Source: Dryococelus australis
Lineage: Eukaryota > Arthropoda > Insecta > Phasmatodea > Phasmatidae
Direction of reading: 5' to 3'
DNA length: 64,000 nt
Assembly: GCA_029891345.1 (NCBI GenBank)
Contig: CM057006.1
Location: 40,709,056 to 40,773,055, forward strand
A program made the position numbers and the translations under genes. The notes under the pieces were generated by a model, which saw only the letters and a program-made list of their open reading frames with translations, made no database searches and was not told the origin of the DNA. Shown here in pieces: positions 22,601-62,324 of the stretch (position 1 is its first letter; every line of letters starts with the position of its first letter).

Positions 22601-25600
22601 AGCCCACAGCAGACGGCATTGAACCGTCGACGCAGACAGGTTCACACCCGTTGCAGTGCTCCAGTGTCAAGCGAACACTATGAATGAGGATGTACTGTCC
22701 GCTACGGCCATGCAAACAAGTTGGCGGTCATACTGTGCTGTGGTCACATTGCGTGGTCCAGTACTCGCTCATCGCTGCATACAACCCTCTTCAATCCACT
22801 GGTTCCACACATGCATCACTGTCGCAGCAGCATGCCCTGTACGAGCCGAAATGTCACGGTATGGTAAACCCGTTTCCCGAAGACCAATCATTTTGCCCCG
22901 TTCGAACTCACTCACTCACATGCTGATATGGCACCCTTTGATGTCGACGAGGCATACTGGCACTTGCTTTCACTTCGTTTGACGGCTCTTCACTGACTGA
23001 GCTTAGCGTGCAACACGAACCTTTCCGGTCTCACAAGAGAGGGCGCTGTTGGGCTTACTTATACGCCATCTCTCTGCAGTTGTAATCACTTATTGTTAGT
23101 ACACTGTTCCACACATTCTCAAAGTTTGGATTGATTCGGGCCATTCTTTCTGGGTGTTGCAATTTTCACAAACAACAGTGTAGATAATGTCTTATTAAAG
23201 TTGAAAAATATGTAGTACAAATATGAAATAAAAAAAAAATTTTTTTTGCCATTACCCTTAAAGTGGCTGCTTGCAGAAGCTGTCTAAAACTGTGCAGACA
23301 TTCAATAAAACACATTCGATTCCAAAGCACTCAATTTTTTTTTGTGGTGTTGTTCACCAGGGTGGCTACAGACAGAGAAAGTCAGAGAATTTGAAACAAT
23401 CAGAGAAAATCAGGGAATTTTTTTTAGACATCATGGAATTCATTCTCATTGAAATGTTTTAATTAACTTTTTGCTATCGCCTATTCAGATATGTTTGATG
23501 TTCCTGTCATTGGTATCTTTGTGAAAGGGTCATTTGCTGGATGTCCATGAAATGTGTTGCAAGTGGTGTATTTCAATTGTTTACCATGTGTGCAGCAGCA
23601 TCTAAAGTGCATCTAATTAATTGACTGCAAAAAGTGCATTCTGTAATGTATTTAAATTTTACAATAAGGTTTTACAAAATAAAGCACACATTATATTAAA
23701 TCTGCTTTGGCTGTATCCTCTACTACATTGCACTTTATAATCTTTAACATTAGTTAATGAGTTGGAGTGGCGGTGTGTGTGTGGTATTTTAAACCAATCT
23801 TAGAAAGGTTCCTTGTTGGGTACGACAGTGATAATTCACAAAACATGGAAATTTTTTTCGACTATAGTAGTAGGTGTGGTTGGGTTTTTTGTTTCAAACG
23901 TTTACCAGCAAAATTACCGAAAGGTATTTATTTTGTTGCATACTTTTGCAGTACTCATGCACATATTACATGACTGTTAAAATTCTTTAGAATAGATAGT
24001 CTGGAGAATAGCATTTCCTACCAAAATTTTATTGTCAACGTACAAGGCTTCAGCTGAATGAAATGTCTAAAAACATTTACTTTTATTGCATTGGTATAGG
24101 CTAAGGGAAAATCTGTGAATGGTGGTAGGAATTTAGTTTTATGTATGTTCTGTGTAGCCACCCTGTCTAATTACGAATAGCATTAAATATGTATGTATAC
24201 GTATATAAATACAAGTTTCTCTGGTCCATAAAAGTGCAGAATTTCAAGTTAGAAAATGATTAAAACAGGAGTTTCTGTGATGCTATTTTAATTTAAAAAA
24301 TTTTAATTCACAATTATTCGAATAACAAAAGGAAATGCATCACATTGACGCCATTGGGTGAGACACGAGACGAACGATGACACAAATACTTACTGGTTAT
24401 TTGGGCACCAGCAGTGCTTTCCAATCACCCCACTAGTGACACTCGGGGTTCTCAGGGATGTTGTGAGTTCTGTGTGTCCATCTCACCCGTGCATATTTAC
24501 AAACACGTAGGCAATACTAAACTTTTTCCTAAACATCACCGGAAATAAACACTTAATAAAGTATATGTGACTAGGACACTGTCACTACTGAATAAAAGGG
24601 TCACCGTAGATGTGTTTTTATTGTTATTATGCATACACATCAACGTGGCAATGAAATTATGATTATCTTGGTCATGACTAGTCAATTCTGCTTGGGTGCT
24701 CCCAGCCTGCTATTACTCTAGCGCATGCCTAGATGGATGATCTCACCGAGGTGAGTGAAAGCACAGCCTTCACAAGTGAAAAGGGCTGACAGCCGCTAGA
24801 GTGGACTGACGGTTTTCCTTAAAGACAGGACACTGTGAATTACTAATGAAACCCTTAATACATATTAACACGTGTGATTACTCGGCATCACTAACGCAAA
24901 CTCGTCTGGGCTTGCCCTCCAACATGTGGGTAGTGTGGTGACGGCCTTTACACAGAGCCGGCTAGGATGGGAATAATTGCACCGTACAATAATTACAAAA
25001 TTACATAAACCCTTGAATGATACATGAAACAAGATGGGACACGAGATGAATATTCACAATAAACACACACGTGTGAAAACAATTTTAGATGGCGCGGATG
25101 CCGCTGGCTGAAGTTCGTAGTGGACCATGTGGTGCAGGTGAAATTGCAATATTTCTGCATGTAAATGGCAAACTATATTCAGACAAAAGATTATCCTTGC
25201 TGAGAAAATTATTCTCTTTACAATTGCAGTGGTTACAGACGTGTAACATGCCTGATGGCGGTAAAATCAAACATTACTGTGACAGCGTGGTCAAGTACAA
25301 AAAGCATCAATTAACGTGAAAAATACATTGAACCCTGAATAAAGTTGACATAGAACCCTGAAATAAATATTGCACATACGATGTTACATAAATAAGCTCT
25401 CAAAACGCAATGATGGTGCATACAAAGACTTGGCGTAGGTCGGCTACGTGCTTATACGTGATGTTGCCGTAAAATATTCAAATACGAAAATTACCCTCAA
25501 ATACATACATAAAAATTAAGCCCTTGAAATTGCATGTAGCAATAATGCAGAAGTTACAATGAAATGCCATAAACATAGGTGGATGGCTCCTGATTCAAGT

Positions 25601-28600
25601 TGTGCGGGTCACGTGACCTCTCCGACATCTTTCTCCTCCTTCTCCTCGATTAAGTTAAAAATGCCACAAGGGCGCAATAAATTAGTAAAGCGGAAGTATG
25701 ATGATAGGGAAAATTGGCAAAAACGTATGCAAGCAAAGGTTAACTGGTAAACTAAATGAACTAAGAAAACCGAAATCAGTGAACAAAAGTTTTAGTGCAT
25801 ACGTGACAGTATTTTTACCTCGTCAACTGTCCTCGACAGACTGTCCAGAGACAAGCGTCGCACGGACCTACCATGGCCGCCTACGGGGTTCACATAAGCG
25901 GAAGTGCTATGCACGCCAAGTAAAATATTTTGTTATAGAAAATATAATGGTACGAATTAAATTTATTATTGTTTTACATTTCTATAATTTTCTTATGAAT
26001 TTCAGTATTATTTTAGTGTGTCTTTATGATGGCATTCGTGCCGGAATTTTAAGTGTTCTTAATCTCGGTGCCGCGGGCACTTTGAACTTTATAACCAAAC
26101 AATTTAAAAATAGTAACAAACACTTGAACACAAATTGAGACATATTAAACCCTGCAAATACAATAGAACATATTGTACACTGAAAACTAACATTTATATG
26201 AGAGTTCAAAATTATTGGCCTCTTTGTGCACGTAGAGGGACACGTGCGTGGTGAGCGCCGTCATGTTGTTTTATTGTGACACCACAAAATAATAAAATAT
26301 GCCACTGGACATCTCATAGATGTACCGGTATCTTGTTTACAAAATGACTGCATTTCTCTTCAGTTCTTTGCATGTATCAAGGTGATAAAGCATTTAATTT
26401 ATGTAACATTGTCACTCTTAAAGCTTTTACACTTATAAAACTCAGAAACACAAAACAGCGTGCCTAGCAGCCACCTTAAATTTTAATTTGGGTTTTTGTA
26501 TCATTTCAATGTTGTTGGTAACAATTAAAAAATAATTTTGTCAATTATTTTTACAGATTTACTGGAAACGTAAAACTGAAAGGTGTAATTGTAATTGGAG
26601 GAGAAGGTGAAACACATCCTTCGCGAATGAGATTGTAAGTAATAATGATGGATGTATGTATATTAATGCGTTCAACTTGTTGTCAGCTGCTTTCATACTT
26701 ATAAGGTCAGGGTAATATGTAATACTAAATGGTGTTTTTAAGAGGAGCATGTAGCTGTGTGTTCAAGATCAAGAAGCGAGGGAGCGATACAGACAACACT
26801 AACACGCACCTCTAGAGCCTCATTGCTCCTACATGCAAGGCATGTAGTGTGTCCATCATGATGTTGTACTGTGCAATTTAGATCTGTATCAGTGGGAATT
26901 TATTACACACAATAAAAGCTCACATAATGAACTATGCCCGCGTAGTTGTACTTCACTCATACCACTCTAGGAAACTGCATAGGCATGCTTCAAAAGTGTG
27001 ACATTTAACCATTTTCACAAATATTTTTCTCCATGAATACACTTAGTATGATAAAAGTAAGAATATAGGGCCATAGATAATGTTTTTTTTGCATTTTATG
27101 GCAGAAAGTAGTATTTTCAGAACATTAATTTACTCAGATGTGTGCTCGTGCAAACAATTATTTCACAGAAAAAGTTACAGTATATACTCCTCTTATATCA
27201 TTTAATTATCATTCATGCCTTGCAACATATATACAATCACAGATTCACTTATTTAGGAGACCCAGTGATTTCACATTCGTATCGGCCATTTTTATTCTAC
27301 CATTTCATCCCCAGAGAGCAGGAAATCACAGGCTGGCTAAATCCCTTAAAAATATACCAGTTCACATTCCAGAATTCAAAGGTGATTCAATGAAGAGCCA
27401 CCATTCTGTACTGCCTGTTCATTTGGTGAAATTTGAGAAATGCCACCATAAAATCTTAAAAATTGTGTTTTAGAGTTTGTTTGTGAATTGAGTTGGTATG
27501 TGCATACGAAACCTGCATATGTCTAAAAAATTATGCGAGCACACATTTTTGGCACTTGTAAAAATCAAAGTTTTGAGAGAGAGTGATGCATATTTGTGGT
27601 TTCATAGGTGAAAAGAATGCCCTGACAAATGCATGAATTGTGGTTTAATAGTGGATACCTTTATACATTATATATGGTCAGACTACTTGTATCCCACCTA
27701 GGAGAACTGGGTTCAATCCCCAGCCTCGTCACTCCCGGATTTTCGCAATTGGGAATCATGCCGGATGATGCCCCAAATCCACTAGTTTTCTTGGGAATCT
27801 CCTATTTCCCCAGCCCTTGCATTCTGGCAGCACTACTCCATTCTCACCTCATTTCACCCTCATTGACTCTCCAAGACCTCGTTAAGAGTCACCCAAATCT
27901 CTCAACCCAACCCAATGTAGTTTTCCATCCATGTTCCAGGCTAATGTCGCTGCATAATGTCAGCCTTCCTAATTTCTTATCCATTAGATTAAGGTCCTGG
28001 ATAGCCTATTTAGGCATGTAAAAGGAAGTGTAATTCTGCATGTTGTTGTTGCCTTCATGCAGTATCAACATGGATGAGGGAAGGCTGGTGTTAATGTAGC
28101 CGGCAACTCCACTTGAGGGACGAACCTGTTGTTTTCGACAGACCAAAGAATGTATGCAGCGAGACGAGGAAATGGGTGCAGTTGCAGCAAAATGATAATG
28201 CGAAAGGAAACAGGATTGCCTAAAAAAAAAAAAAAAAACCATATTCCATCAGTGCCCATCACTCTTGCTGCATGAGGAAAACTATCTGAAAAATTTTCTT
28301 CCCAAGAGTCTAGGATTGACTATGTGGCTTTGTATATGTAAATTTATTTTAGGCTCTTGTGTACTTTTTTCCCCAGTGATAATTATGGAAGAGGCAAATA
28401 TGCTAACCACAGTTGATAGTAAATATCTGTAACAAAAACAAAACATTTACTACTCTGTGCAACCAAGTTCATTTACACAAAACTGGTTTTTTTTTTTCTT
28501 TCATATATGCTGTGATAGAGTGTTTATTTCTGTTCCAATTATGTAAGAGACTTTTACTACAATTTATGTCTTCCAGTCTGGTTCAAATGTTTGTAGTGTT

Positions 28601-31600
28601 CAATTTAAAATTTTGTTTTTCGCATGAAACAATATACCCAGTTAATTAGTGATATAATATTGTTTTATTTCAGATTTAAAAATCGTCCCCACATGACATT
28701 TGACGACACGCTGTCAACACCAGACCAAGAATTTGAACTTCATCCTGACACTACGGGAACAATAGAATACTCAACTAAGTAAGTTGTTTATTCCATGCTC
28801 ATACACATTGTTACTATTCTAAAGTTTTATACCTGACTTTTTTGTGGCATTTGTAAAAAAAAAAAATACTTTTATAATAGTTTTTTGTTTCTCCAGTTGT
28901 TACTTAAAAAAAAAAAACATTTATAAGTAGAAGTTAAAAGTGGACACATTTTAAAAATTTAAATGAGAGAACAAACCAGATCTTGCACTTAAAGTAGCAT
29001 TAACATACTACTTAATTGAGTTAATATTTAGACCTTAGTATAAAAATGGTACATTTATATCTCCCAAACTTACTCCTGGAAAACAATACACTGCCTATAG
29101 TCCATTTACAGTTTCTTCGGATGTTTTGAAACAAACCTATGAAAAATCACCCTAGGAATAACATGTCAACCGGTTTTTTAAATAACTTGTATTCCTTAAA
29201 TATATAACACTGTGATAAACTGATGTGTGACGCTCTCAAGATATATGCAACCACAAATACGTCTCACCTGTGCGTATCTCCTTGGCGCACCAAGCGGGGT
29301 CTGAACCAATATGATATCTACCAGAGTACACACAGCTTACGTCCCTTGTTGCGGGGAGTAATACAGACACGTCAATATTTTACTGTTCGTCGCAGTCTGA
29401 GAGCCATGCCAATGACCCCACAGAGAAGATGAGTAAGCCAGCGGCCGAGCGGCTGAAACCACCCCCTACAGTAAAGTAGTTGAAGAGCATGCCAAGCGAT
29501 AGCGCCACCTGCCGCGCTCGGGCCTTCAGCAGACGCCGTAGCAGACAACCCTTGGTTCCGTCTCCAGTGATGTCTTCACTCCCACCCCAGCAGGCCGGGC
29601 GAGGGCAAGTTGGCCAGTAGTTATATCTGCGCGTGGCTCAGAAGCGCCAGTTGTACGTCAGCTCTTCTGAGAGCTACACAGCTTCAGCAGTTCGCTCCAC
29701 CACTGTGTGCGCTGGAGCTCTCTCTGACCGCTTTCTGTCTTCCAGACAACCCAGAAGCTCTTCAGTTCCAACACCAGCTATGCCCAGACCTTCCAAAGGA
29801 TCTCCCCCTGCAGACCTTGGAGATTACCCCTCCTGGTAACGGCAGCCCCACTACCCTTCAGAAAGTGAGCCGCCTTATTCCCTTCAGGAAAAGGAAACAG
29901 AGTAGATAAGGAAAGCTATCAGCTACCTAGTCGAATCTGCCTTCCATTCTACAACGAGGTCCCCTTCACCTGGCATATTGCGTAGTTTACACCTTCGGTC
30001 AGCACAAAGTAGTTAGGAGGTAGTATGGACCACCGTGTCTATTCCTTTCAGGAATAAAACGCGTATTCTCTCTTACTTTGACTTACCTTTCCTTAGGTTA
30101 CTGTGTGATTCCCTGTAAACGCCACGCCCACCAAAGTGAATCAGGAGACCAGGCTTTTACCACCTGATTTTACCGCTTCTACTGTAGGACTGCGAGTCCT
30201 CTCAGGGACTCTTACGTCGATCACACACATATGCTCGACGGCCACCCGTTGGGTGCACCTTGGTGTACCGAGAGGCAGAGCCACAACCGCTAGGAAGGCA
30301 ACCGATAAGGCGGCTAGTCAGCCAGGCCAATTGGTACTCCGTCCACCGCACCGATGTGTTACCGGAGGGGTATTTGATTGGTCTTGGGGGCCTGACTGCC
30401 TTTGGACCCACACCCACAGTTATTGTTGGATGATTCTGAGAACACCCACATTCCAACCACCGCTCCATTTGTGTCACCGGGTGGAGTAAGGGTACAGCTC
30501 TGTGTCAGTTCGGCTGTGGCTGTAGCTGAACACATCTAGCTAGGGACCATACGTTGCCTGCTTCCCTGTAGCGAGGCTGGTAGTAGAACCCCCCATGCCT
30601 TATATCAAAAGAGGTGGGAAGGTTATGCAGGAGAGAAAGGCAGCTGCCACTTACAAGACTACCTGGGGCTGCACCACGATATCTAAGGCACTCTGCCATG
30701 ATAACCTCCGGGACCGAGCTCATGCCGCCCACCAGCTGGAGAAGCATGACCTCCCAGCTCCCTCCCCATCTCTATTTTCAGCCCTAAAGAAAACGCCTGG
30801 GATGCCCCTTCCAGTAGTAGCAGCCATCCATCGAGGGGAAGCTGTCCTGCCCAGCATCGCCTGCCCCTGGTTCAAGGGGAACCGGAGTTCCAGCCCGACT
30901 AAGGCCCTCGCCAAAGACACCAGCCACCGCAGCACCCTCGGGACACCCAGCTCCACCAGCACCACCAGCAGCCGATACCAACTGCCATGACTGGGGCAGC
31001 AATCTAGTCGGAACACCACCAGTGCAGGTAACGCCATGACTGTGAGTCACCAGGTCCGACGGGTTGCACAACCAGTAGTTGACTTTGTGCATAGTCACTA
31101 GGTGGTGCGCCCTACCCTGTATATTGGTCGGGCCCCAGCCTGCCATTCAGATAGTCAGTCGTAAACCCAGTGTGACTGACCTGCAAAAAAAACTAGATTC
31201 GACAGTGACATAGTCATTGACTGTTCCCGAGCCCGTCACACGCCAAAACTTTAAAGTATTGTATTCTTGAATAAATTAAACTTTAACTTCTTCTGTATCT
31301 TGTAATATTTATTTCAAATTAAATAATAATTAAAAATAGTGAAAGCAGCGATGTGTTGGCAAAGGCTAGTAAGAATTAGTTCACAGTTAAAATATTGTTT
31401 TAACGTAGTTTTTTGGTATGCTATTTGTAAATTAGGCATTGCCTATTGATATATTTAAATTTTTAGGTAGCACTGAAAGAAACATATTTCATTGATACAG
31501 TTAAAAATATCAGTGCAAATTACGGTGCTTAGCCCCTAGTGGCACAGTGTTTTTTTCCGTCCGAGGAAGAGACTTGAATAAACTGAACGGAGTTTGTCTC

Positions 31601-34600
31601 TCTCTACCTCTCCCCCCTCTGCCTCTCTCTCTACCCCCCTATCTCCTCCCTCTCTCTCCCCCTCCTGGGAGGTGTCCGGAACATCTGAGCCTATCTAGAG
31701 ATATGCTCACGACTATCCAGATTGTCTAACTCGCTCATTACCTCAGATTGTATGAAAAGTTTGAGCCCAGGAGGGCTTGAGCTACACTGAATAGACTGGG
31801 AGTGTGCCATTATAATTAAGTGTAGTAATTGTGAGCCAATTTCTTAATGCCCCTGAACAGAGGAGGGTGCAGTAGCCAGCTTCGACGTCTAGTCCGACAG
31901 GCCCTACAAAGAGAGTTAATGTTACCCCCGGCTACTGCAGCTCCTAGCCTTACCAGTGTGCCCCTACAGAACACCCAGCCTACTAAGCCTCCCTTTAATC
32001 CACCCAAAGAACTGCCCTCTATAAGTGAGGACTGTAGTTAATTTTTGATTCCTTGCTAGGAATTAGTTGGTCGTGGCCGGATCTAGAATACTTGAGTAAT
32101 CTAGAACCTCAAGAATCCAGACCGTAACCTAGCCCCCTACCACGACTGTGCTCAGTCCGTAGTAATTTCACTAACACGTGTCAAATACATACCACCGCCG
32201 GAAAATTGATAACTGTCACCATTCCCCCTAAACTGGCACATTCCCATAAGGTGGCGATGATTACCTCAGAATTTGTCCCTGTATGCAAAGTAACTAGGCC
32301 GGCCCCGTATAAACGTCCAGTTAGCATACGAGAGACAGAGCAGGAACTGCCAGGAGAAGTATAGTTCATCACCATTTCGTGACTATAGCATACCCATTTA
32401 TTCCCCTTTTTAAATTAATTAGTGACAGATGGTATTATGTATCTTGGCAACCTTTACGGTGATCAGGACCAAACTCCCTGGGGGGGGGGGGAAGTTTATG
32501 CATTCAAGCTCACCCTGGGATTTGATTCCCCTCCTCCACCTATCAAATCTTCTCTGAGCCAGTGCCTCATTAGATCTCTCAATGTGGGTAGATTCACGAC
32601 CCTGCCAGGCAAAGCATGTCTAGAACTCACAGACACTGCTGAATAGTATTCCCATAAATCGAGGATGGAACCAGCACTCCCACTCACCGGATATTATTTC
32701 ATTTATCCGCTAGGCCTGCTAGTCACTAGGCACCCTACTGATAACCTACCGGCGAGCAAGTAGGTGAGGGAGAGAGGGAGTGCGTCAATTGGCGTCCAAC
32801 GTGGGTTGTAAGCTCCAAGTAGTTCAGCTGTGGCGCTCAACATACCATACCATCATGTCAAGCTCAGACGACAGCGTGCATGAACCTCCAGAAGTATCGG
32901 CACAAGCTGGATACTTGTCTGATTGACACACAATGTCCTATCGAAAACTGTAATGGAACGGGTATCAATATGATCCAATGTGAATATTTCCAAAGGCAAT
33001 TCCATTATTCATGCCTAGGATGGGCAGATACCCCTAGGTACATGAATGGGTTGGAATTCAGGTGCCAGCTATGCCAACTGACCCAGGTGGTCACCTGCCA
33101 TTGGCCAGTGTGTGATGGGCAGGGACAGTATACTGTACGGTGCGGAATATGTGCGAATGAATACCACCACAAATGTATAGTTTGGCCGGACGAACGTATT
33201 ACGCGTTCCGGTTAAGTATACCAGTGTGGCGTGTGTAGATGCAATCTTGCACACCGACTCCCAAATCCCGGACCGTGGGTCAGCCCAGCGATCTTCAGAT
33301 TATATACAGAGCTGCAGCTTCCAGAGTTCAGTGGACGACCGCATGAAGACCCGGTCCTCTTCCTGAATGAATGTGAGCGAGAGATGTACGAGCATCAAAC
33401 ACCATCCAAACAGTGGGTAGGCAGGGCATGTCCTCAACTGGGTGGAAAAGCACAACAATGGTGGGAGAAATACGTGGAGTTCATTCAGGAATGGGCTCAA
33501 GTAAGGACCTGTGACTCGCCGCACATTTCGCTGGTGACGAGGGGATGTCGGGGTTAATCACCCACTTTCACTTTCGAACCCAGACCCCTGAGGAGGAGGT
33601 AGAATTGTTTATTCGCCAGAAAGAGTGGATACATAAAAGAATTTATTCAGACCAGAATGAACAACAAAGGATAATGTGTGTTGCTCACACCCTCCTCCCT
33701 TCCTTCCGAAACCTGCTGCTAACCCAGCGGCCTCAAACCGTGGAAGAGCTGGCAGAAAGGGCAAAGGAAATAGAACAAAACAACCGCCCGCAGTCTAGGT
33801 AGACATCCCGGCACACGCCGCCAAGAACGCTGGTCCGGGCCCTTCACCAGACCGCCTGCAGGGTGTGACTCAACCCTTCTGCTACCTGCCGCCTGCTTGC
33901 CATGCTGCTGGCATTGCCTGGGCCACCACTACAACAAAGATTACCCAACCCTGCGAGCTCCGGAAAGGAGAAACCCTCCTCTCCGACCGCAGGGGATACT
34001 ACCCTGTTATTTAATTGGTGGAAAGTCTCTAACAGAGTTCAGTACAGGCCCTATAGTGTATTCATTTGTGTTTGAGTTGTATGTTTTGAAGCATAATCGG
34101 GAAAAGAACTCTACTTTCCCTCTCATTCAAATCTCCTTACCAGATTGATGTGAGCCTAGGGTTATGAGGGTACTAACGTCCATATGTTAGACGTCACTAA
34201 GATGTGCAACTTCAAATAGTAAACATGTGGCTAGGGTGGGGGTTCTCCACGTTGAGGTGAATATTACCCTTTGGGCTTATTTGCATAAACGTCGGACCAA
34301 AGACTAGGTGATTTAAACCCTATACTAAATTTGACAAAATATGTTTCCTTATACGAGGGTTTAGTCTTGGTCACTTTGAGAGACTTCAAATATCACGATG
34401 CCATAATCACGGAGTACATTAGGGTAAGAAAAATAAGACAGGGTCCTTAAGTTCTGTTGGGTGCCCGACTGGTATATAAGATAGGCCTCGTGGGGCATCT
34501 GGTCGGTACAAAATCTGGGATTACAGACCCCACCCTTTGTCTTAACTGGCACTGTACCTTAGGAGTGATGGAAGGAGGGTGCTCCTCCTCGTTGACTGGC

Positions 34601-37600
34601 TCACGTGGTGGGTGAGCGGTTGGTCAGCAGCTGGCTCTGGTTGATGTGCAGTGGTGCAATTATTCTCATAGTCTGAATGGACTAGAAGAAGGGTATCCTG
34701 CAATTGTACCCCAAACCAGGGGCAGGCAAGACATAGGGGAATTTCTTCCCCATGAGCAATTGCCTCTACGATCGGGTGCAGTCTATCAGGTGGTTTGATT
34801 AAGGACGGAAATAATGGTGTTGAGAGGTGCGACAAATAAGTGGTATCAATGTCGCTTACCGCACTTTCTGAAGGGGTCAGTCTATCTCACACACTGTGGC
34901 TTGTAAGGCCCTCTTTAGTCTTTTCTGTGTGCCTCTCTTCTGAGAGTATGGCATTTGGTCACAGAATAAAACAATCCACAGAGGATAAGCCGGCACTTTG
35001 GTGTCGCTAGCATGTTTTTCCAGGTACTCAGACTTGTGACGTGCAGTAACACTCTGCGTTCCTTTCATCCGGCCTTTGCAAGTGGTGTACAGAAATTTGA
35101 GCAGCACATCTCACTTCCTCGCTGAGATACCTGGGTGTGGTATCCCCAGGAGGTCGCTCAGGCCTAAGTGGATCCAGTACCAATCCGGCCACGTTAGCAG
35201 CGGTGGTAGAGTATATATCACCTGGTCAGGTCAATTCTCCTAGTGGATGGAGTGCGTAGTGCTTTTGGTGCAGCTGAAGGTGTACCAGTTGACAGAGCTT
35301 GGTTTGCCTCCGGCTTTTCCTCTGAGATGTATTTTAATTTTATCAAAAGTGAAAAGGGGTTATTCAAATTACACTCAAAGAGAAATGAATCTCTCAAGGA
35401 TATGCTTAAAATTACATGTTGTATTTTACATACCTACTTAGAAAACAGGGTTGTTCCACACTAACACCTATTAAATCAAATTTAAGATTACGGAAGTTAA
35501 TCCTAACCTTAGAATCCAGGTGACGGCAGACCTGGTGCAAGAGCTAGGTGTAATGTGTAGGCGAATTAACACAGGAAATTAAAATAACTAATAGTTAACA
35601 TATTTGACAGCACCTAACTACCAAGGTTGTTCTTAAGGAACCTAGGAAAAATCAATTACCAGAAGGGCAGTTGATATCGCAGTTCCACTCTCCAGTGGGC
35701 TATAGAGGTCCAGAAAGGATGTCGACGCAACCTTCTACCAAGGGGGTTCTGGTGGTTACCAGGATGTAGGCGAGGAACGACGTCTTCAACTTAAGCTTTA
35801 TGGATAAATGTGGTGGGACCATGAAATAATGGTGTTAATATGCAGAAAAATTTTATATGCAGGAATGTGATGACAGGGTTCTACATAGTATTGATTGTAT
35901 GTGTAGTCTCATGAAAGAACCATTTTGTCCTCGTCTTGTAATGTTTTCTTTTTTTAGGTTAGCATATCGGTAGGCGTGTGCAAATATTTGCTATACCAAA
36001 ACGAAAATGACAAATGACAGTATTCATTGTCTTTTCAGTAAGAAATTCAGTTGCAGAAAGTTGTTGCAAAACAAAAATTCTCTATTTCAATGAATATTCA
36101 GGTATTTAATGAATGTTGATTTACTTGACCAGCAAACGAAATTGTCTGTAAATTATCTTGTTAGCTTTTATTATTTTATAACTGAAATAACTACAGTACA
36201 TAAAACTGAAACTTGAATGTAGGCAAGAACCCATGTGATAAATATTCCATATCCTACCTTTCTTTTTGTTTTTGTTTTGTTTTGCAATGATTTTGTCATG
36301 AAAAATAATTTGCTAAAATTTTAGGAACATCATTAAACTTTCATTAAGATTGTGCTCTTATGAAATTATTTTTAGTTTTACTTTCATAGAAGTTCATTAC
36401 ATACTGACGCCGTCGGGTGAGACACGAGACGAACAGTGACACAATAAACTTATGGTAGGTGGGGGCCAGCGGTGTTTCCCAGTCACCGCACTGTGAGACT
36501 CAGGGTTCTCAGGGATGATGTGTGTTCTGTGTGTCCATCTCACCCGAGTGTACTTACAAAACACTGCATTACTAAACAGTTTAACACTGAAAAAGGTGAG
36601 AGATTGCTGTCACTATAAAGAAATACTTTATGCACTGTTAGACTTGCTTTTATTTTGTCACTCATTACAAAATCGTGCCAGGATTTGCTTTATGATTGAA
36701 CTTGGATGTGTCTAGCTAACTCCGTCGGGTGCTTCCCCAACCCATAATTAATCTAGTGCACTCCTAGATGGATGACTTCGCGGTGTTGGAAAACACAGTC
36801 TTCACAAGGAAAGGGGTCTACAGCCACTAGGATGGATTGTAGATTTCTCCTGAAGACAGGGCAGGGAAAATTACGAAATGAACAGTGGACACGTGTGATT
36901 ATTTGGGATCGCTAATGCGGACTTGTCGGGACGCGTCTCTCAGCACGTGGTGAGTGTGGCAACGGCCTTTACACATAGCCGGTTAGGACGGAAATAATGT
37001 CACTGTACAAATTACACAAATAACACAAATAGAGATGAGACAGCATGGGACGTGACATGAATGGTCACAATAAACACGCAGATGCGTGAAAGCAAACTTA
37101 TATGGCATGGATGCCGCTGGATATGATTTGTAGCGGATCACGTGATGCAGGTGAAATTTCAGTATTTCTTCTTAAAAACTGCAAATTATTGTCAGCCAAA
37201 TTGTTAGTGATGTTGGGGAAAAATATTCCCCTGAAGATTTATGCATTTATAGGCTTCTAACATGCCTGATGGCGGGAAAATCAAACATGAAATAGACAGC
37301 GTGGTCATACATACAAAGCATCAATTACATGAAAATACACGGAACCCTGAATAAATTAATACATAGAACCCTGAAATTAATTATGGCGCACATATTACAC
37401 AAATAAACCCTCAAAGCGCATTGATGGCACCGATATTGATTTGACTTTGATTAACCACGTGGCCGCAAATGATATGGCTGGAAAACAATTAAACATGAAA
37501 ATTACCCTTAAATACATACATGAAAATAAAGCCCTTAAAATTGCATGCATCAATTAAACAGGAATTACACTGAAACACCTTTAACATAGGCGGATGACGC

Positions 37601-39541
37601 CTGATTCAAAGTTTTGTGAGCCGCGTGGCCTCTCCGAAATTTTCTCCTCCACGTCACCTCGTTTACATTGGAAAAGTCACAAGGACACAAATTATTAAGT
37701 TAAGTGTAAGCATTATGCTGGGGAATGTCTGGCCAAACGTATGCAAAACAAATGTTAACCGGTATACTAAAAGTGAACTATTGTAATGTACGTCAGTGCA
37801 AAAAGTTTGTAGTGCGTACGTGACAGCATCTTACCTCACCAGCTCTCCTCGGTGGACTGCCCAGAGGCAGGGGTCATGCTGCCTACGGGTTTCACACAAG
37901 CAGAAGTAGTATATATGCAGAGTGAAACTTTAATTTTCATAATAAATGGCACATAAATGATTCAAATATTGATATTTACATTTTAGATTTAAATTGTGAA
38001 TTTTCCATATTCTTTAAATGTTTTTTATGACGGCGTTCATGCCAGAATAATAATGTTATTAATCTTCGCACAGTGCACACTTTGAATTCATAACCAAACA
38101 TTGTGCAATATTATCATACATACATTTTAAACATTTGAACACTTGAGAAACCTGGAAATAAAACAAGAGACATAATTTTACACTTCGAATAAATATTCAG
38201 TTATTGGAAAGTTCAGGTTATGGCCTCTTTACACACGTGCATGTCCACGTGTCACGTGATTGGTGAGTGCCGTAATGGCCTTAACGCGGCTGACTGTTAG
38301 CCGGCATCAATACATATATTTATTTTGTTTTCATTTTGTGAAAAAAAGTTGCATTCGCACAATCCAACTTGTTGGGTACATATTTTAATGGTGTCGTCAA
38401 AAAACCAGTATTCCAAACATGCTGCAATATCTTTGTGTTCACAAACACAGAACATAAAAATAAGCAACTAAATAGGTATCCTTTGAAGTTCTAATACTTC
38501 TAATACTATATTAGCAGGAGGAAATGAAATACTACAAAACATTTCTGGCGACTCTCAAAATGAAACACAGGAAGTCCTTATATAGTGCGTGACTTACCTT
38601 TGTAAATGTGCATGCTGAAAAATTTCACTGTAATAATCATGTCTTCCCATGAGAACAGTGCTAGTCGAGTTTTGTATTTCTTGACGATTTCTTAAAATAA
38701 CAACATTGCATGCCTCATTGCTAAACGTGTCAAAAAACTACTTGTGTAACAAAAACTAAAATTACTGTAGCCTGTTTGCAGTTAATTGAATCTTGTTTGC
38801 AGGTGAATATTTTTAAAATTTACCATTGTTTAGCCACTTTAAGTTATAAATTTTAAAAAGAAAAGAAACAAAGCTGTAAGAGGTAGCATTTGGTTTGTGC
38901 TTGACTTCGTCATGCTACACACTGCATTCATGAGTTTAGTTGCTAACATCTAACTTACATAGCCAGTGTGTTCTAAGTTCAAATCAGATTTCAACTTTAT
39001 TGCCTATTTTTGTGCTGATAGTAGCAGTGACAGTAATATATAGGGACAGATGTTTTTCGTGGTTGGATTATTTTAAATGTCGCATGACTCAACTGTCTGT
39101 CCATGAATCATGGACGCTCAGAACCGGAGTACTTCATTACGATTGGCCCCATCAGATAGGAACATGTCATTTCAAGCAGCTACGCATCCAATAACCAAAG
39201 GAAATTGCGGTTGTGGACATAAGATTTTGAAGTCTAGCATGTCCATAAATATTTTCGCGAAAGACACCTGTCCCCACATTACTAAATGACATTCTGTCAT
39301 ATAATTGTTTTTTTTATTTTTTTGTTGCAGAGTGGTAAAATTTTCCTCAGTTCACCACTTGACAATGCATTTCCCGAGAAATTTTGGCAGTGAAACAACA
39401 AAGGTATACTACATAGGCCTCAGAGGAGAATACAGTGAAGCTTATAGGCATGGCGTTACTATTTGTACCTATGAAGCACGCCCGAACTTGTCGGACCACA
39501 AAACTAACCTGATGGACAATGTAACTCATGAAGTGCAATGA
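13477..39541 (+). CDS. PITHD1: PITH domain-containing protein 1 (complete, five coding exons)
   Basis: join(13477..13662, 18211..18254, 26557..26634, 28674..28778, 39331..39541) gives 624 nt, 207 residues plus stop; the human protein has 211. All introns are GT-AG and all phases close. The protein has a His/Gly-rich start (MSGNHGHSCQGNHNHDD), then IHYSLYTKIDTENLECLNE. Next come the PITH-domain hallmarks FVESDVDEELLFNIP, FTGNVKLKG, HPSRMRLFKN and KVYYIGLRGE. The PITH domain is the C-terminal proteasome-interacting module first seen in thioredoxin-like TXNL1; PITHD1 has it without the thioredoxin domain. The human protein is reported as a positive regulator of RUNX1 in megakaryocytes and is linked to the 26S proteasome. 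It is divergent from CDC23 and convergent with TTLL3. The N-terminal start is fixed by homology and by the lack of an upstream in-frame ATG. Confidence 0.97.
13796..14387 (+). mobile_element. Non-LTR retrotransposon (LINE) 3' end, copy 2
   Basis: The plus strand carries the same reverse-transcriptase tail as the copy at 6545-7127: MVRPMLEYAAAVWDPYVE, ELEKVQRGAVRWVKG, then GWSSLKDRRKVERLV. It ends with TTGCGAGTATATGTATTATT. Stops and frameshifts make it a fossil. It starts about 135 bp into PITHD1 intron 1. The two copies face outward from the CDC23/PITHD1 promoter. Confidence 0.75.
14622..14923 (+). repeat. tRNA-derived SINE, family A, copy 2, with internal 43-bp duplication
   Basis: It has a good B box (GGTTCGATTCCCGGC) and the CTCCCGGATTTTTGCATG body. 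A segment of about 43 bp beginning TGCCGCTGGTCGGCGGGTTT is present twice in tandem (14728-14770 and 14771-14813), which the other copies do not show. The 3' end has the family's CACCATACTTACCTTGCTTC region. Confidence 0.8.
15145..15350 (-). repeat. Dispersed repeat R2, copy c (5'-truncated)
   Basis: The minus strand carries the distal two thirds of R2, including the block GGTGTGTCGGTAATG and the terminal AAGAAATAGTTCTTATTC. It lies in PITHD1 intron 1. Confidence 0.65.
15950..16640 (+). mobile_element. Tc1-like DNA transposon fossil
   Basis: The plus strand, read across frames, follows a Tc1 transposase. A linker region near 15955-16200 is followed by a catalytic-core segment, and FQQDNILPHTAP at 16566-16601 corresponds to the FQQDNARPHTA motif with the second catalytic Asp (GAC, 16575-16577). 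It is broken by stops and shifts. The region just upstream (15360-15940) is uncharacterised and may be part of the same or another element. Confidence 0.7.
16759..17180. mobile_element. MITE of about 420 bp, relative of the one at 7427
   Basis: The left end AGGCTGTTCACGATTAAGTG, then AGAACTTTTGA, is inverted at the right end, whose reverse complement reads AGGTGATTCACGATAAACTG then AGCACTATTGA. TA bounds both ends. The TTCA and TGAGCAC elements match the 226-bp MITE. It is non-coding. Confidence 0.7.
18211..18254 (+). CDS. PITHD1: PITHD1 coding exon 2
   Basis: A 44-nt exon between acceptor GTTACAG and donor GTAAGT. It encodes FVESDVDEELLFNI plus two bases of Pro, almost identical to the human sequence here. 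It is far too short to appear as an open reading frame and was placed by homology. Confidence 0.95.
19275..19340. repeat. Imperfect hairpin within a GC-richer intronic patch
   Basis: ACATCCCCGTGA is followed about 35 bp later by its near-perfect reverse complement TCACGGGGGATGT (one extra G). It may mark the end of an unassigned transposable element. Confidence 0.5.
21140..21434 (-). repeat. tRNA-derived SINE, family A, full-length copy
   Basis: This is the best-preserved family member. On the minus strand it has GGCGCAGTGGCAAGGGCACT (A box), CCGGGTTCGATACCCGACGG (B box), the body CACTCCCGGATTTTTGCATG, and a longer 3' region through CCTTGCCTTGGGTTCACTCC. The head resembles a tRNA but has no complete cloverleaf, so it is a SINE and not a tRNA gene. 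Confidence 0.85.
22284..23174 (-). mobile_element. Tc1-like transposon, decayed, with terminal inverted repeats
   Basis: The ends are inverted repeats of about 30 bp: the left reads TGTTTGTGAAAAATGCAACG, then CCAAGAAAGA, and the right reverse complement reads TGTTTGTGAAAATTGCAACA, then CCCAGAAAGA. The total of 891 bp is shorter than an autonomous Tc1. The minus strand encodes MFLDESHFNLSYNDERICV and SVLVWAIIKV, matching the DESRFNL and VMVWGAI motifs with the first catalytic Asp kept. The catalytic core downstream of VWGAI is missing, so it is a deletion derivative. Confidence 0.8.
23358..24165. mobile_element. Non-autonomous DNA transposon ending CAGGGTGGCTACA
   Basis: Perfect 13-bp terminal inverted repeats CAGGGTGGCTACA and TGTAGCCACCCTG bound 808 bp. 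Just inside the left end, GAGAAAGTCAGAGAATTTG and AAATCAGGGAATTTTTTTT resemble the termini of widespread CAGGGTGG DNA elements of insects (CACTA/Chapaev-like by recall). No transposase motif was found. The target duplication is not obvious. Confidence 0.65.
24346..26263 (+). repeat. 1.9-kb direct repeat, copy 1
   Basis: It matches 36405-38275 in order and orientation. Shared blocks are GGGTGAGACACGAGACGAAC, GTTCTGTGTGTCCATCTCAC, GGATGCCGCTGG, CATGCCTGATGGCGG and GGTGAG-GCCGT at the end. The ends read TGACGCC and GCCGTCA, resembling an LTR or transposon terminus. No protein motif is seen. It is probably a solo LTR or a non-autonomous element; the family is unknown. Confidence 0.7.
26557..26634 (+). 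CDS. PITHD1: PITHD1 coding exon 3
   Basis: A 78-nt exon between acceptor TTTTTACAG and donor GTAAGT. It completes the Pro codon and encodes FTGNVKLKGVIVIGGEGE followed by THPSRMR, ending with two bases of Leu. Confidence 0.95.
26763..27123 (-). repeat. Dispersed repeat R1, copy 2 (inverted)
   Basis: Inverted partner of the segment at 1139-1500. It lies in PITHD1 intron 3, about 130 bp downstream of exon 3. The copies differ by many substitutions and small gaps, so the repeat is old. I see no coding potential. Confidence 0.7.
27672..27913 (+). repeat. tRNA-derived SINE, family A, copy 4
   Basis: B box GGGTTCAATCCCCAGC, body CACTCCCGGATTTTCGCAATT, and the tail AGAGTCACCCAAATCTC. It is degenerate at its 5' end and has no clear target duplication. 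Confidence 0.75.
28674..28778 (+). CDS. PITHD1: PITHD1 coding exon 4
   Basis: A 105-nt exon after acceptor TTTATTTCAG, ending before GTAAGT. It encodes FKNRPHMTFDDTLSTPDQEF and the following ELHPDTTGTIEYST, matching the YKNIPQMSFDDT segment of the human protein. Confidence 0.95.
29096..29222 (+). repeat. Dispersed repeat R2, copy b, left half
   Basis: It starts with CTATAGTCCATTTACAGTTT and continues through GAAAAATCACCC to AAATATATAACACTGTGATA. Its expected continuation is found 2 kb further on at 31248, so the copy has been split by an insertion. Confidence 0.65.
29223..31247 (+). mobile_element. Inserted GC-richer element of about 2 kb, possibly an LTR
   Basis: It sits inside an R2 copy. 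The ends form an inverted repeat, GTGTGACG at the left (29223-29231 region) and CGTCACAC at the right (about 31235-31242), and contain TG and CA as in LTRs. An AATAAA lies at 30054. Short proline/serine-rich frames occur (for example near 29610-29910 and 30595-30990) without recognised domains. A flanking target duplication could not be confirmed. A solo LTR or a remnant retroelement are both possible. Confidence 0.5.
31248..31400 (+). repeat. Dispersed repeat R2, copy b, right half
   Basis: It continues R2 from the TAAAGTATTGTATTCTTGAA block to GATGTGTTGGCAAAGGCTAG, then TAAGAATTAGTTC. Together with 29096-29222 it forms one nearly complete R2 copy. Confidence 0.65.
31585..31672 (+). repeat. 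Polypyrimidine (CT-rich) tract
   Basis: Nearly uninterrupted C and T, built from TCTCTC and CCCCCC runs, directly upstream of the gag-bearing region. It has potential to form triplex DNA. It creates a meaningless leucine/proline-rich frame. Confidence 0.7.
32790..32805 (+). other. Retrotransposon primer-binding site, tRNA-Lys-like
   Basis: TGGCGTCCAACGTGGG differs by one base from TGGCGCCCAACGTGGG, the complement of a lysine tRNA 3' end used by several LTR elements. It stands two bases after GAGTGCGTCA, which has a plausible LTR end, and 50-65 bp before the gag start. This places the 3' end of a 5' LTR at about 32787. Confidence 0.7.
32854..34010 (+). pseudogene. Retrotransposon Gag with two PHD-like zinc fingers (dead copy)
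   Basis: It opens with an ATG at 32854 (MSSSDDSVHEPPEVSAQAGY), then shifts frame. Two Cys/His modules follow. The first (about 32930-33080) has CPIENC, IQCEYFQRQFHYSC and RCQLC, with one zinc ligand changed to Phe. The second (about 33100-33240) is intact: CHWPVC, RCGICANEYHHKC, QCGVC, apart from an internal stop. Next comes a capsid-like region (LQLPEFSGRPHEDPVLFLNE, later LLTQRPQTVEELAERAKEIE). Last is a zinc knuckle CCWHCLGHHYNKDY (near 33898-33940) whose final Cys is Tyr. Stops and shifts show it is inactive. The pol genes that should follow are not recognisable. The C4HC3 spacing is why I call the fingers PHD-like; their function is inferred only. Confidence 0.75.
34150..35830. mobile_element. 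Retroelement-derived segment, partly inverted
   Basis: The minus strand at 35000-34540 reads MPYSQKRGTQKRLKRALQ and later PIVEAIAHGEEIPLCLACPW. These resemble the plus-strand frames MPYIKRGGKVMQERKAA and PVVAAIHRGEAVLPSIACPW at 30595-30880. This suggests a related element inserted in the opposite orientation. 35460-35830 on the plus strand has retroelement-like composition with no firm motif. Borders are unknown. Confidence 0.45.
36405..38275 (+). repeat. 1.9-kb direct repeat, copy 2
   Basis: Second copy of the repeat at 24346-26263, here in PITHD1 intron 4, with frequent substitutions and indels. The right terminus is damaged (CGTAA in place of CGTCA). Two PITHD1 exons lie between the copies, so they cannot be the paired LTRs of one insertion. 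Confidence 0.7.
39331..39541 (+). CDS. PITHD1: PITHD1 coding exon 5 (last)
   Basis: It starts after TTTGTTGCAG and runs to TGA at 39539-39541. It encodes the end of the PITH domain (FSSVHHLTMHFPRNFGSETT, KVYYIGLRGEYSEAYRHGVT) and the C-terminal tail. The first base completes a Lys codon. Confidence 0.97.
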
Positions 39542-39758: not shown

Positions 39759-40701
39759 AACCTAATATCATTTTATAAAAAATTTTTGTTATAAGGGTGT
39801 TAACGTATTCAAATTTGAAGTTGGAAGGCCTCGATTGTTGAGTACCTGTGGTAATAACACGGTCAGTACTCTCAACAAGAATTACAGTAGAACCATTCTA
39901 ATAGAACCCTTCACAATTTCCAAAAATATGGTAACTATGGAAAAAAAGTTGTTACGGTATAAATATTTTGGGAAATTTTGGACCCATTTTAACCTACCCC
40001 TTACTCCTATACCTCAAAATGTGCAAATTTTTGCATGAAGTTGTCTTTTATGCAAAAAAATGACATTTTTCTTAAAATCAAATAAAAATTTATTTTAATA
40101 TGCAGATGTGTTTCCGAATTCTATATAAATCTATAATTTTCCAAAAGATTTTGTGCCCAAAATCAAACCAATTTCTGTATGGGCATTTCAAAAAAAAATT
40201 TCTGTGATAACTAAATTTAATGGTATACAAATGAAAACTTCTATAGGACATTTAAAAAAAAAGAATAAAAGTGAACTGTGCAGAGCAGAGCACAATACTA
40301 ACAGAGAAGATGAGCTAGCTGTGTCAAGTTCATGGTCTCGGGCAGTGATGCAGCAGAACAGAATGTAAAGTAATGGCACAAACAAAGCAGAGACGTGACT
40401 ATAATCAATACTTCTACAGTCGACAGATTGCTAACACCATTCATGGGGAAAATTAAAAAGAGTCACTAAAAATATGGTTTTTAGGCAGATTTAAGATTAA
40501 TAAAGGAATACATTACACAGTTCATCCATATACTGAAAACTTCACAAAATGATAAACTGGCTGTTCAGGGTAGAACTGTGCTATCTTACTTTGGGAAGAG
40601 TTTTCGGGTAGGGGATGATATTGACAGCTCCATCCTGTTGATGTAGTGACGTTGCCAAGAACATACAGAAGCTAGCCAAATCAGAGAGAGAAAGAAGACT
40701 A

Positions 40702-40975
40702 TAGTCTATTCGCAGTTTCTTCACACTTTTAAAATTTTACCTCTAAAAAATCACTCATGTATGACGTGATGGTTGTTTACTCTATATGTCGTGTATTGCA
40801 AGCATTTTGCACTAGTGTTAACGTAAAAGTACCTTATTTTTGGTTAAGTTGTATTTTTCGTATATTTTATCAATAAATTATAATATTTAATTTTTAAATT
40901 TTATTTATACAACGAGAAAATAGATGTGTTGGTAATGGCTAGTAAGAAATAGTTCTTTGCACAATTGTATTACAG
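40702..40975 (+). repeat. Dispersed repeat R2, copy d
   Basis: The plus strand reads TATAGTCTATTCGCAGTTTC at its start and GTTGGTAATGGCTAGTAAG, then AAATAGTTC, at its end. It is the fullest copy and allows the split copy in PITHD1 intron 4 to be recognised. It lies just downstream of PITHD1. Confidence 0.7.

Positions 40976-49526: not shown

Positions 49527-62324
<12,798 letters not shown>

What the first reader, a model, noticed from the sequence alone, without database searches (positions are those of the whole stretch)
32854..33940. Retrotransposon Gag with two N-terminal PHD-like zinc fingers
Two consecutive C4HC3-spaced modules precede a capsid-like region and a CCHC knuckle, just after a lysine-type primer-binding site. 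PHD fingers normally read histone H3 tails, so a Gag carrying them could steer the particle or integration to chosen chromatin. I do not know this arrangement as a standard one in gypsy elements.
Basis: partly seen in the sequence, partly recalled or inferred. Interest (0 to 1): 0.7.

Follow-up and report, generated by a model that had tools for sequence, protein, structure and literature searches.

The report
Dead retrotransposon Gag with PHD-type fingers
The sequence holds the broken front end of an old retrovirus-like jumping element whose shell protein seems to have begun with two zinc fingers of a type usually found in proteins that read chromatin; this is an unusual combination, but it is seen here in one damaged copy and what the fingers did is untested.

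Summary
A tRNA-Lys-type primer-binding site (32790-32805) is followed, about 50 bases on, by an ATG, two tandem 47-residue zinc-finger modules (32934-33074, 33096-33236), a two-lobed capsid closest to Arc, and a worn CCHC-like motif. Both fingers share one ligand spacing, and each matches Pfam PHD alone (E 2.6e-4, 4.9e-4; below Pfam's cut-off). Finger 1 lacks its fourth Cys; a stop interrupts finger 2. The last Cys pair of finger 2 shares a stop-free frame with the capsid N-lobe, which argues against a neighbouring gene. The copy is dead: two or more frame breaks plus the stop, and no pol or LTR pair in the part searched. No intact copy was seen, as the genome search did not complete, so the joined frame is unproven. 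Chromatin steering is plausible but untested; the Trp recalled for H3K4me3 reading is Gln or Glu here. PHD fingers are known in LINE ORF1 proteins and a Ginger1 transposase; ten searches of a partial library, seen mostly as listings, showed none in a Ty3/gypsy Gag. New variant of a known kind.

The parts
32790..32805 (+). Primer-binding site, tRNA-Lys type, 15 of 16 bases
   Evidence: only site with <=3 mismatches in the window. The 16-base query was recalled, not taken from a call.
32855..32926 (+). First ATG after the PBS and its 23-codon frame, possible Gag start, closed by TGA; another frame than the fingers
32823..33215 (+). Open frame (130 aa) with finger 1 and most of finger 2; own ATG at 32880; ends at stop 33213-33215
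   Evidence: Pfam PHD E 1.3e-4 with 2 stretches
32934..33074 (+). Finger 1, PHD type, 7 of 8 zinc ligands (fourth Cys is Phe)
   Evidence: Pfam PHD E 2.6e-4 alone, PHD-1st_NSD E 0.0019; best solved structure AIRE E 0.56
33096..33236 (+). Finger 2, PHD type, 8 of 8 ligands, interrupted by a stop before the last CxxC
   Evidence: Pfam PHD E 4.9e-4 with X at the stop and 8 flanking residues, next best I-EGF_1 E 0.0025; solved ZMYND11 PHD E 0.0029
33216..33557 (+). Open frame holding the last CxxC of finger 2 and the capsid N-lobe
   Evidence: solved Arc N-lobe E 0.0035; Pfam Arc_capsid_dom E 0.055
33515..33802 (+). Open frame holding the capsid C-lobe, shifted against the N-lobe frame
   Evidence: Pfam Arc_C E 7.1e-7, 29.5 bits, cut-off 31.9; solved Arc C-lobe E 4.5e-6
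33906..33944 (+). Worn CCHC-like knuckle (CX2CX3HX4Y), in a frame shifted against the C-lobe
   Evidence: Read by eye from the 33774-34148 frame; no Pfam match

Best explanation
This is the decayed 5' part of a Ty3/gypsy-type LTR retrotransposon. Its Gag carried two tandem PHD-type zinc fingers where retroviruses have a matrix domain and most Ty3/gypsy Gags have nothing, followed by an Arc-like two-lobed capsid and a nucleocapsid knuckle. Shown: PBS, fingers, capsid lobes, their order and strand, and the shared frame of the end of finger 2 and the N-lobe. Inferred: that all parts once formed one reading frame. Inferred mechanism: finger pairs held at the N-termini of many Gag copies bind a histone tail or another chromatin protein with high avidity, so that the incoming particle or its Gag-bound DNA is held on chromosomes before integration. 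A ligand other than H3K4me3, such as unmodified H3 or another partner, is more likely. My probabilities: anatomy 0.85, chromatin tethering 0.35. The confidence given is for the anatomy together with a targeting or localising role of some kind; it overlaps the first rival (cytoplasmic localisation), so the figures do not sum to 1.
For: PBS 15 of 16 and unique in the window at <=3 mismatches, with the ATG about 50 bases downstream. Each finger matches Pfam PHD on its own, better than ligand-preserving shuffles. The fingers have identical length and spacing, and their non-ligand residues score higher than in shuffles (BLOSUM fraction 0.0002 of 20,000; identity 5 of 39, fraction 0.057). The first ten of 23 solved-structure sequences found with the two-finger profile come from proteins recalled as PHD-bearing (PHF8 twice, ZMYND11 twice, AIRE, CHD4, KMT2D, Cph2, Spp1, MLL3 homolog), though none is significant (best E 0.042). 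Both capsid lobes match Arc. The last CxxC of finger 2 lies in the N-lobe frame. Precedents from passages seen: the N-terminal stretch of the Ty3 capsid runs outward and, in one conformation, over the capsid (PMC6525542); a PHD finger fused to LEDGF/p75 in place of its PWWP domain and AT hooks moved HIV-1 integration to transcription start sites, and HIV-1 with MLV Gag parts integrated less in gene-rich regions (PMC4176367); foamy virus Gag has a chromatin-binding signal (PMC7828637).
Against: One broken copy only, with no relative in viral contigs by three queries and none credible in genome contigs (a 14-residue chance match). PHD scores are below Pfam's cut-off, and one shuffled control reached PHD_4 at E 0.016. 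Beyond its first ten, the two-finger profile mainly found C2H2 fingers of zif268 type. Finger 1 lacks a ligand, and the first Cys pair is spaced CX4C rather than the usual CX2C (recalled). The Trp two residues before the ligand His, recalled as part of the H3K4me3 cage, is Gln in finger 1 and Glu in finger 2. No pol, integrase or LTR pair was found to confirm the class, though only part of the downstream ORFs was scanned. Mutations altering MLV p12's chromatin contact did not change site choice (PMC4176367).
Confidence: 0.55

Rival explanations
1. Same Gag anatomy, but the fingers are structural or nucleic-acid-binding: they help Gag-Gag contacts, RNA selection or cytoplasmic localisation, and bind no chromatin.
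For: The recalled cage Trp is missing in both fingers (sequences). In Cer1 the large N-terminal Gag domain is proposed to target P granules or microtubules, not chromatin (PMC10309623). PHD folds can serve other ends (recalled).
Against: The nearest solved-structure matches are chromatin-protein PHD fingers, though mostly not significant. A CCHC-like knuckle would already supply an RNA-binding zinc module.
Confidence: 0.4
2. The fingers belong to another sequence, such as a CR1/L2-type LINE ORF1 with PHD or a host gene exon, that lies by chance or insertion beside a gypsy gag remnant.
For: PHD domains are found in many subgroups of CR1 and L2 lineage ORF1 proteins (PMC4120745). The copy has a possible frame break before the finger block and no intact copy is known.
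Against: Only about 50 bases separate PBS and ATG, and the finger frame overlaps that ATG. The last CxxC of finger 2 is in the same stop-free frame as the capsid N-lobe (33216-33557), so an insertion boundary would have to fall inside the finger. No LINE domain was seen in the pieces scanned around it.
Confidence: 0.1
3. A Gag-derived host gene (domesticated, Arc-like) with PHD fingers, now a pseudogene.
For: Arc itself is a domesticated Ty3/gypsy Gag (PMC6525542); the best capsid matches are Arc; no pol was found.
Against: A primer-binding site just upstream is a retroelement part with no use in a host gene. Arc is the main solved relative; the same Arc lobes were the best templates for Ty3 itself, so the match does not show descent from Arc.
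Confidence: 0.08
4. Chance: cysteine-rich noise read as fingers in a non-coding stretch.
For: Scores are below Pfam's curated cut-off; one of 10 shuffled controls reached PHD_4 at E 0.016.
Against: None of 40 shuffled windows holds a strict C4HC3; two separate modules each match PF00628 at E below 5e-4, against 0.13 for the best of 10 shuffles that keep the ligands.
Confidence: 0.03

Closest known systems
Arc and Ty3/gypsy Gag (Metaviridae)
   Same: Both capsid lobes match Arc models or solved Arc lobes; a knuckle-like motif follows; a PBS precedes.
   Different: Most Ty3/gypsy Gags begin at the capsid (PMC10309623); here two PHD-type fingers precede it. No pol was seen here.
PHD-bearing ORF1 of CR1/L2 lineage LINEs
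   Same: A PHD domain in the ORF1 protein of a retrotransposon, with general targeting to the genome proposed by the authors (PMC4120745).
   Different: Those are non-LTR elements with RRM, coiled-coil, esterase or CCHC domains; no capsid was mentioned in the passages seen. Here two fingers stand before an Arc-like capsid.
Ginger1 DNA transposons (Hydra Ginger1-9)
   Same: A gypsy-integrase-related element with a PHD motif (PMC2836005).
   Different: The PHD is in the C-terminal part of the transposase, in one family of the table seen, not in a Gag.
Chromoviruses
   Same: A Ty3/gypsy element carrying a histone-reader type module.

Membership tests
Ty3/gypsy LTR retrotransposon (Metaviridae) | Primer-binding site complementary to a tRNA 3' end, shortly before gag | tested here: met
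   32790-32805, 15 of 16 to the recalled tRNA-Lys type
Ty3/gypsy LTR retrotransposon (Metaviridae) | Two-lobed capsid of the Gag fold | tested here: met
By sequence: Arc_C E 7.1e-7, 29.5 bits against a cut-off of 31.9; solved Arc C-lobe E 4.5e-6, N-lobe E 0.0035.
Ty3/gypsy LTR retrotransposon (Metaviridae) | CCHC knuckle CX2CX4HX4C | tested here: inconclusive
   Remnant CX2CX3HX4Y at 33906-33944; no Pfam match
Ty3/gypsy LTR retrotransposon (Metaviridae) | pol in the order PR-RT-RH-IN | tested here: inconclusive
   No pol domain in 24 of the 116 ORF pieces; 92 pieces, among them all beyond about 35.8 kb, were not scanned, and the copy is probably truncated
Ty3/gypsy LTR retrotransposon (Metaviridae) | Paired LTRs and target-site duplication | tested here: inconclusive
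   The 1.1 kb before the PBS has no second copy in the window. One direct pair flanks the gag (31300-31382 and 40878-40955, 75%), but it is a dispersed repeat with further copies and ends 1.4 kb before the PBS. Target-site duplication not tested
PHD finger (PF00628) | Cys4-His-Cys3 ligands with PHD spacing | tested here: met
   Finger 2: 8 of 8, with a stop before the last pair; finger 1: 7 of 8; first pair CX4C, wider than the recalled usual CX2C
PHD finger (PF00628) | Profile score above the curated cut-off | tested here: not met
   22.4 bits for the ORF, 21.4 and 20.5 for the single fingers, cut-off 24; hence called PHD-type
H3K4me3-reading PHD | Aromatic cage Trp two residues before the ligand His | tested here: not met
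   Gln in finger 1, Glu in finger 2 (sequences); the rule itself is recalled

The most novel reading that the evidence does not exclude
A lineage of Arc-like Ty3/gypsy elements evolved or captured a tandem PHD reader as a replacement matrix domain, so that the capsid surface itself reads chromatin. Integration or nuclear retention would then be steered by Gag rather than by integrase.
Probability: 0.25. Interest if true: 0.75.

Novelty: new variant of a known kind. Interest (0 to 1): 0.5.

Why it matters
If intact copies confirm the frame, this would be a Gag with a chromatin-reader module at the place of the matrix domain. It would make directly testable whether a retroelement's shell, rather than its integrase, can choose chromatin. 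It would also add Gag to the LINE ORF1 and Ginger1 proteins that carry PHD modules, and suggest that mobile-element proteins gain such modules repeatedly.

Tried and rejected
Searched for relatives of the finger, C-lobe and N-lobe pieces in viral contigs (none) and of the finger piece in genome contigs (one locus, L001, rejected as a 14-residue chance match in a bacterial MAG). Both collections are poor places for an animal element. Looked for an LTR pair and other copies in the window: no second copy of the gag or of the 1.1 kb before the PBS. One direct repeat pair flanks the gag (31300-31382 and 40878-40955) and was rejected as LTRs, because it belongs to a dispersed repeat and ends 1.4 kb before the PBS. 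Looked for pol in 24 of the 116 ORF pieces (17 plus, 7 minus strand): none. The limits were E 5, E 1, and E 0.01 for the one piece. PHROGs gave only E 0.03 or weaker, unknown function. Rfam at gathering thresholds and ARAGORN gave nothing. Solved structures with the whole finger ORF gave only a weak MYT1 match, E 1.3, less clear than with the fingers apart.

Papers: 14 were opened, all by found passages, none read whole. PMC9004415, PMC5408684, PMC4255032 and PMC3118150 held the search word only in references or not at all in the text; PMC10799480 has PHD in host-TE fusion proteins, not in a Gag; PMC12440569 (Troyka) describes Gag similarity to dArc but no PHD. PMC3286476 lists a Culex gypsy insertion at an exon-intron junction of a gene annotated 'phd finger protein'. 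That gene could be a chance neighbour or a misnamed element protein, and I could not check it. That no PHD-bearing Ty3/gypsy Gag was found rests on search in an open-licence subset, seen as listings; some searches showed only part of the papers that matched. Repbase and most subscription papers were not searched, so the arrangement may be listed there.

Full report
What is in the sequence. On the + strand, 32790-32805 matches the tRNA-Lys type primer-binding site at 15 of 16 bases; no other site in the window has 3 mismatches or fewer, and two have 4 (the query was recalled). The first ATG after it is at 32855 and opens a 23-codon frame. A second, overlapping frame, 32823-33215, holds the fingers and has its own ATG at 32880. 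A stop at 33213-33215 ends it. The next frame, 33216-33557, starts with the last Cys pair of finger 2 and runs without a stop into the capsid N-lobe. The C-lobe lies in a shifted frame, 33515-33802, and the worn knuckle motif at 33906-33944 in a frame shifted again. So in about 1.1 kb there are two frame breaks (three if the first ATG was the Gag start) and one stop, and the copy is dead.

Are the fingers real? Both modules are 47 residues long with the same spacing Cx4Cx9Cx2[C]x4Hx2Cx16Cx2C. They share 12 of 47 residues and 5 of 39 outside the ligand positions. The BLOSUM score over the non-ligand positions is reached by a fraction of 0.0002 of 20,000 shuffles, while the identity alone is reached by 0.057, so the evidence for common origin of the two modules is moderate. 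Finger 1 has Phe for the fourth Cys. A strict C4HC3 pattern, chosen after the sequence was seen and allowing stops as any residue, is found in the six frames of the window only over finger 2, and in none of 40 shuffled windows. Pfam PHD scores 22.4 bits for the frame (cut-off 24) and E 2.6e-4 and 4.9e-4 for the fingers apart; the next best families are PHD-1st_NSD (E 0.0019) for finger 1 and, unrelated to PHD, I-EGF_1 (E 0.0025) for finger 2. Of ten shuffles that keep the ligand positions, two matched PF00628 (E 0.13 and 0.37) and one of them also matched another PHD family, PHD_4, at E 0.016. The real finger 2 query carried 8 flanking residues that the shuffles lacked. A profile of the two fingers finds 23 solved-structure sequences up to E 10. 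The first ten are from proteins that I recall as PHD-bearing, none significant (best E 0.042), and most of the rest are C2H2 fingers of zif268 type. Finger 2 alone finds the ZMYND11 PHD finger at E 0.0029; finger 1 alone finds only AIRE at E 0.56 and an unrelated enzyme at E 0.76. I therefore call them PHD-type fingers, probable rather than certain.

Is it one protein? The order PBS, ATG, fingers, capsid lobes, knuckle is that of a gag gene. The last Cys pair of finger 2 and the capsid N-lobe share one stop-free frame. An insertion of a foreign finger gene would need its edge inside finger 2. This is strong but indirect; the proof is an intact natural copy, and the genome search did not complete in 19 tries (listed in Tried and rejected).

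What is the element? The C-lobe matches Pfam Arc_C at E 7.1e-7 (29.5 bits, cut-off 31.9) and solved Arc at E 4.5e-6. The N-lobe matches solved Arc at E 0.0035 and Pfam Arc_capsid_dom only at E 0.055. Arc is described as a domesticated Ty3/gypsy retrotransposon, and Arc lobes were also the best templates for Ty3 itself (PMC6525542, passages), so this places the protein among Ty3/gypsy-type Gags without making it Arc. No pol domain was found in 24 of the 116 ORF pieces listed for 33.9-40.7 kb. The 1.1 kb before the PBS has no second copy in the window. One direct repeat pair does flank the gag, 31300-31382 and 40878-40955 (75% identical), but the downstream copy lies in a repeat that also occurs at 1954-2376 and 15143-15303, and the upstream one ends 1.4 kb before the PBS, so I do not take it for LTRs. 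The copy is probably a 5' fragment. A different gypsy pol remnant lies at 11151-12543 on the minus strand; nothing links it to this gag.

How it may have worked. Most Ty3/gypsy Gags begin at the capsid and lack a matrix domain; Cer1 is an exception with a large N-terminal domain that its authors suggest may localise particles (PMC10309623, passages). In the Ty3 particle the N-terminal stretch of the capsid runs outward and, in one conformation, over the capsid (PMC6525542), so an N-terminal finger pair could be displayed outside in many copies. [quoted passage not shown] On the other side, mutations that altered the chromatin contact of MLV p12, a Gag-derived tether, did not affect site choice (all PMC4176367, passages). 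Foamy virus Gag carries a chromatin-binding signal (PMC7828637, passages). I put chromatin tethering at 0.35 and a structural, RNA-related or cytoplasmic role at about 0.4. The Trp two residues before the ligand His, recalled as part of the H3K4me3 cage, is Gln in finger 1 and Glu in finger 2. If a histone tail is read, H3K4me3 is not the likely mark.

Known or new? PHD domains are established in LINE ORF1 proteins of the CR1 and L2 lineages, where a targeting role was proposed and, as far as those authors could tell, no functional study existed (PMC4120745, passages), and in a Ginger1 transposase (PMC2836005, passages). A survey of markers across LTR elements lists chromodomains and CCHC arrays and has no occurrence of 'PHD' in the held main text (PMC2774666). 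Ten searches of the held library, seen as listings and through passages of 14 papers, showed no PHD-bearing Ty3/gypsy Gag. One listed Culex gypsy insertion touches a gene annotated 'phd finger protein' (PMC3286476), which I could not check. The library is a subset, and Repbase was not available, so this does not show that none is described. I rate it a new variant of a known kind, interest 0.5: unusual and testable, but resting on one broken copy.

Host. The window's organism was not identified. Its repeats look animal, and by eye and memory some look like arthropod repeats; no call establishes this.

Noticed in passing
window 11151-12543, minus strand: Remnant of another gypsy-type pol: reverse transcriptase (E 1.4e-17), RNase H (E 9e-11) and integrase H2C2 (E 8.1e-13) in separate ORF pieces.
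   Followed up: partly
window 36389-38277 and 24332-26265, plus strand: Two copies of an unnamed repeat of about 1.9 kb, 70.5% identical.
   Followed up: no
window 30762-30872 (+) and 34714-34824 (-): Inverted pair flanking the gag, about 60% identical in DNA and 47% over 34 residues in translation, lying in ORFs of 148 and 114 aa without any clear Pfam match; perhaps two remnants of another coding element.
   Followed up: partly
window 49527-52253, minus strand: Uninterrupted 908-aa open frame with an internal tandem repeat (about 30 bases, 50652-51024) and no Pfam match at E 0.01; possibly a host exon.
   Followed up: partly
window 53784-54182, minus strand: ORF that by eye resembles an arthropod mariner-like transposase end; no Pfam match at E 0.01.
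   Followed up: partly
window 40700-41113 with 2376-1954; 40819-40974 with 15303-15143; 40878-40955 with 31300-31382: Copies of a further dispersed repeat, 73 to 79% identical; two pairs inverted, one direct pair flanking the gag.
   Followed up: partly
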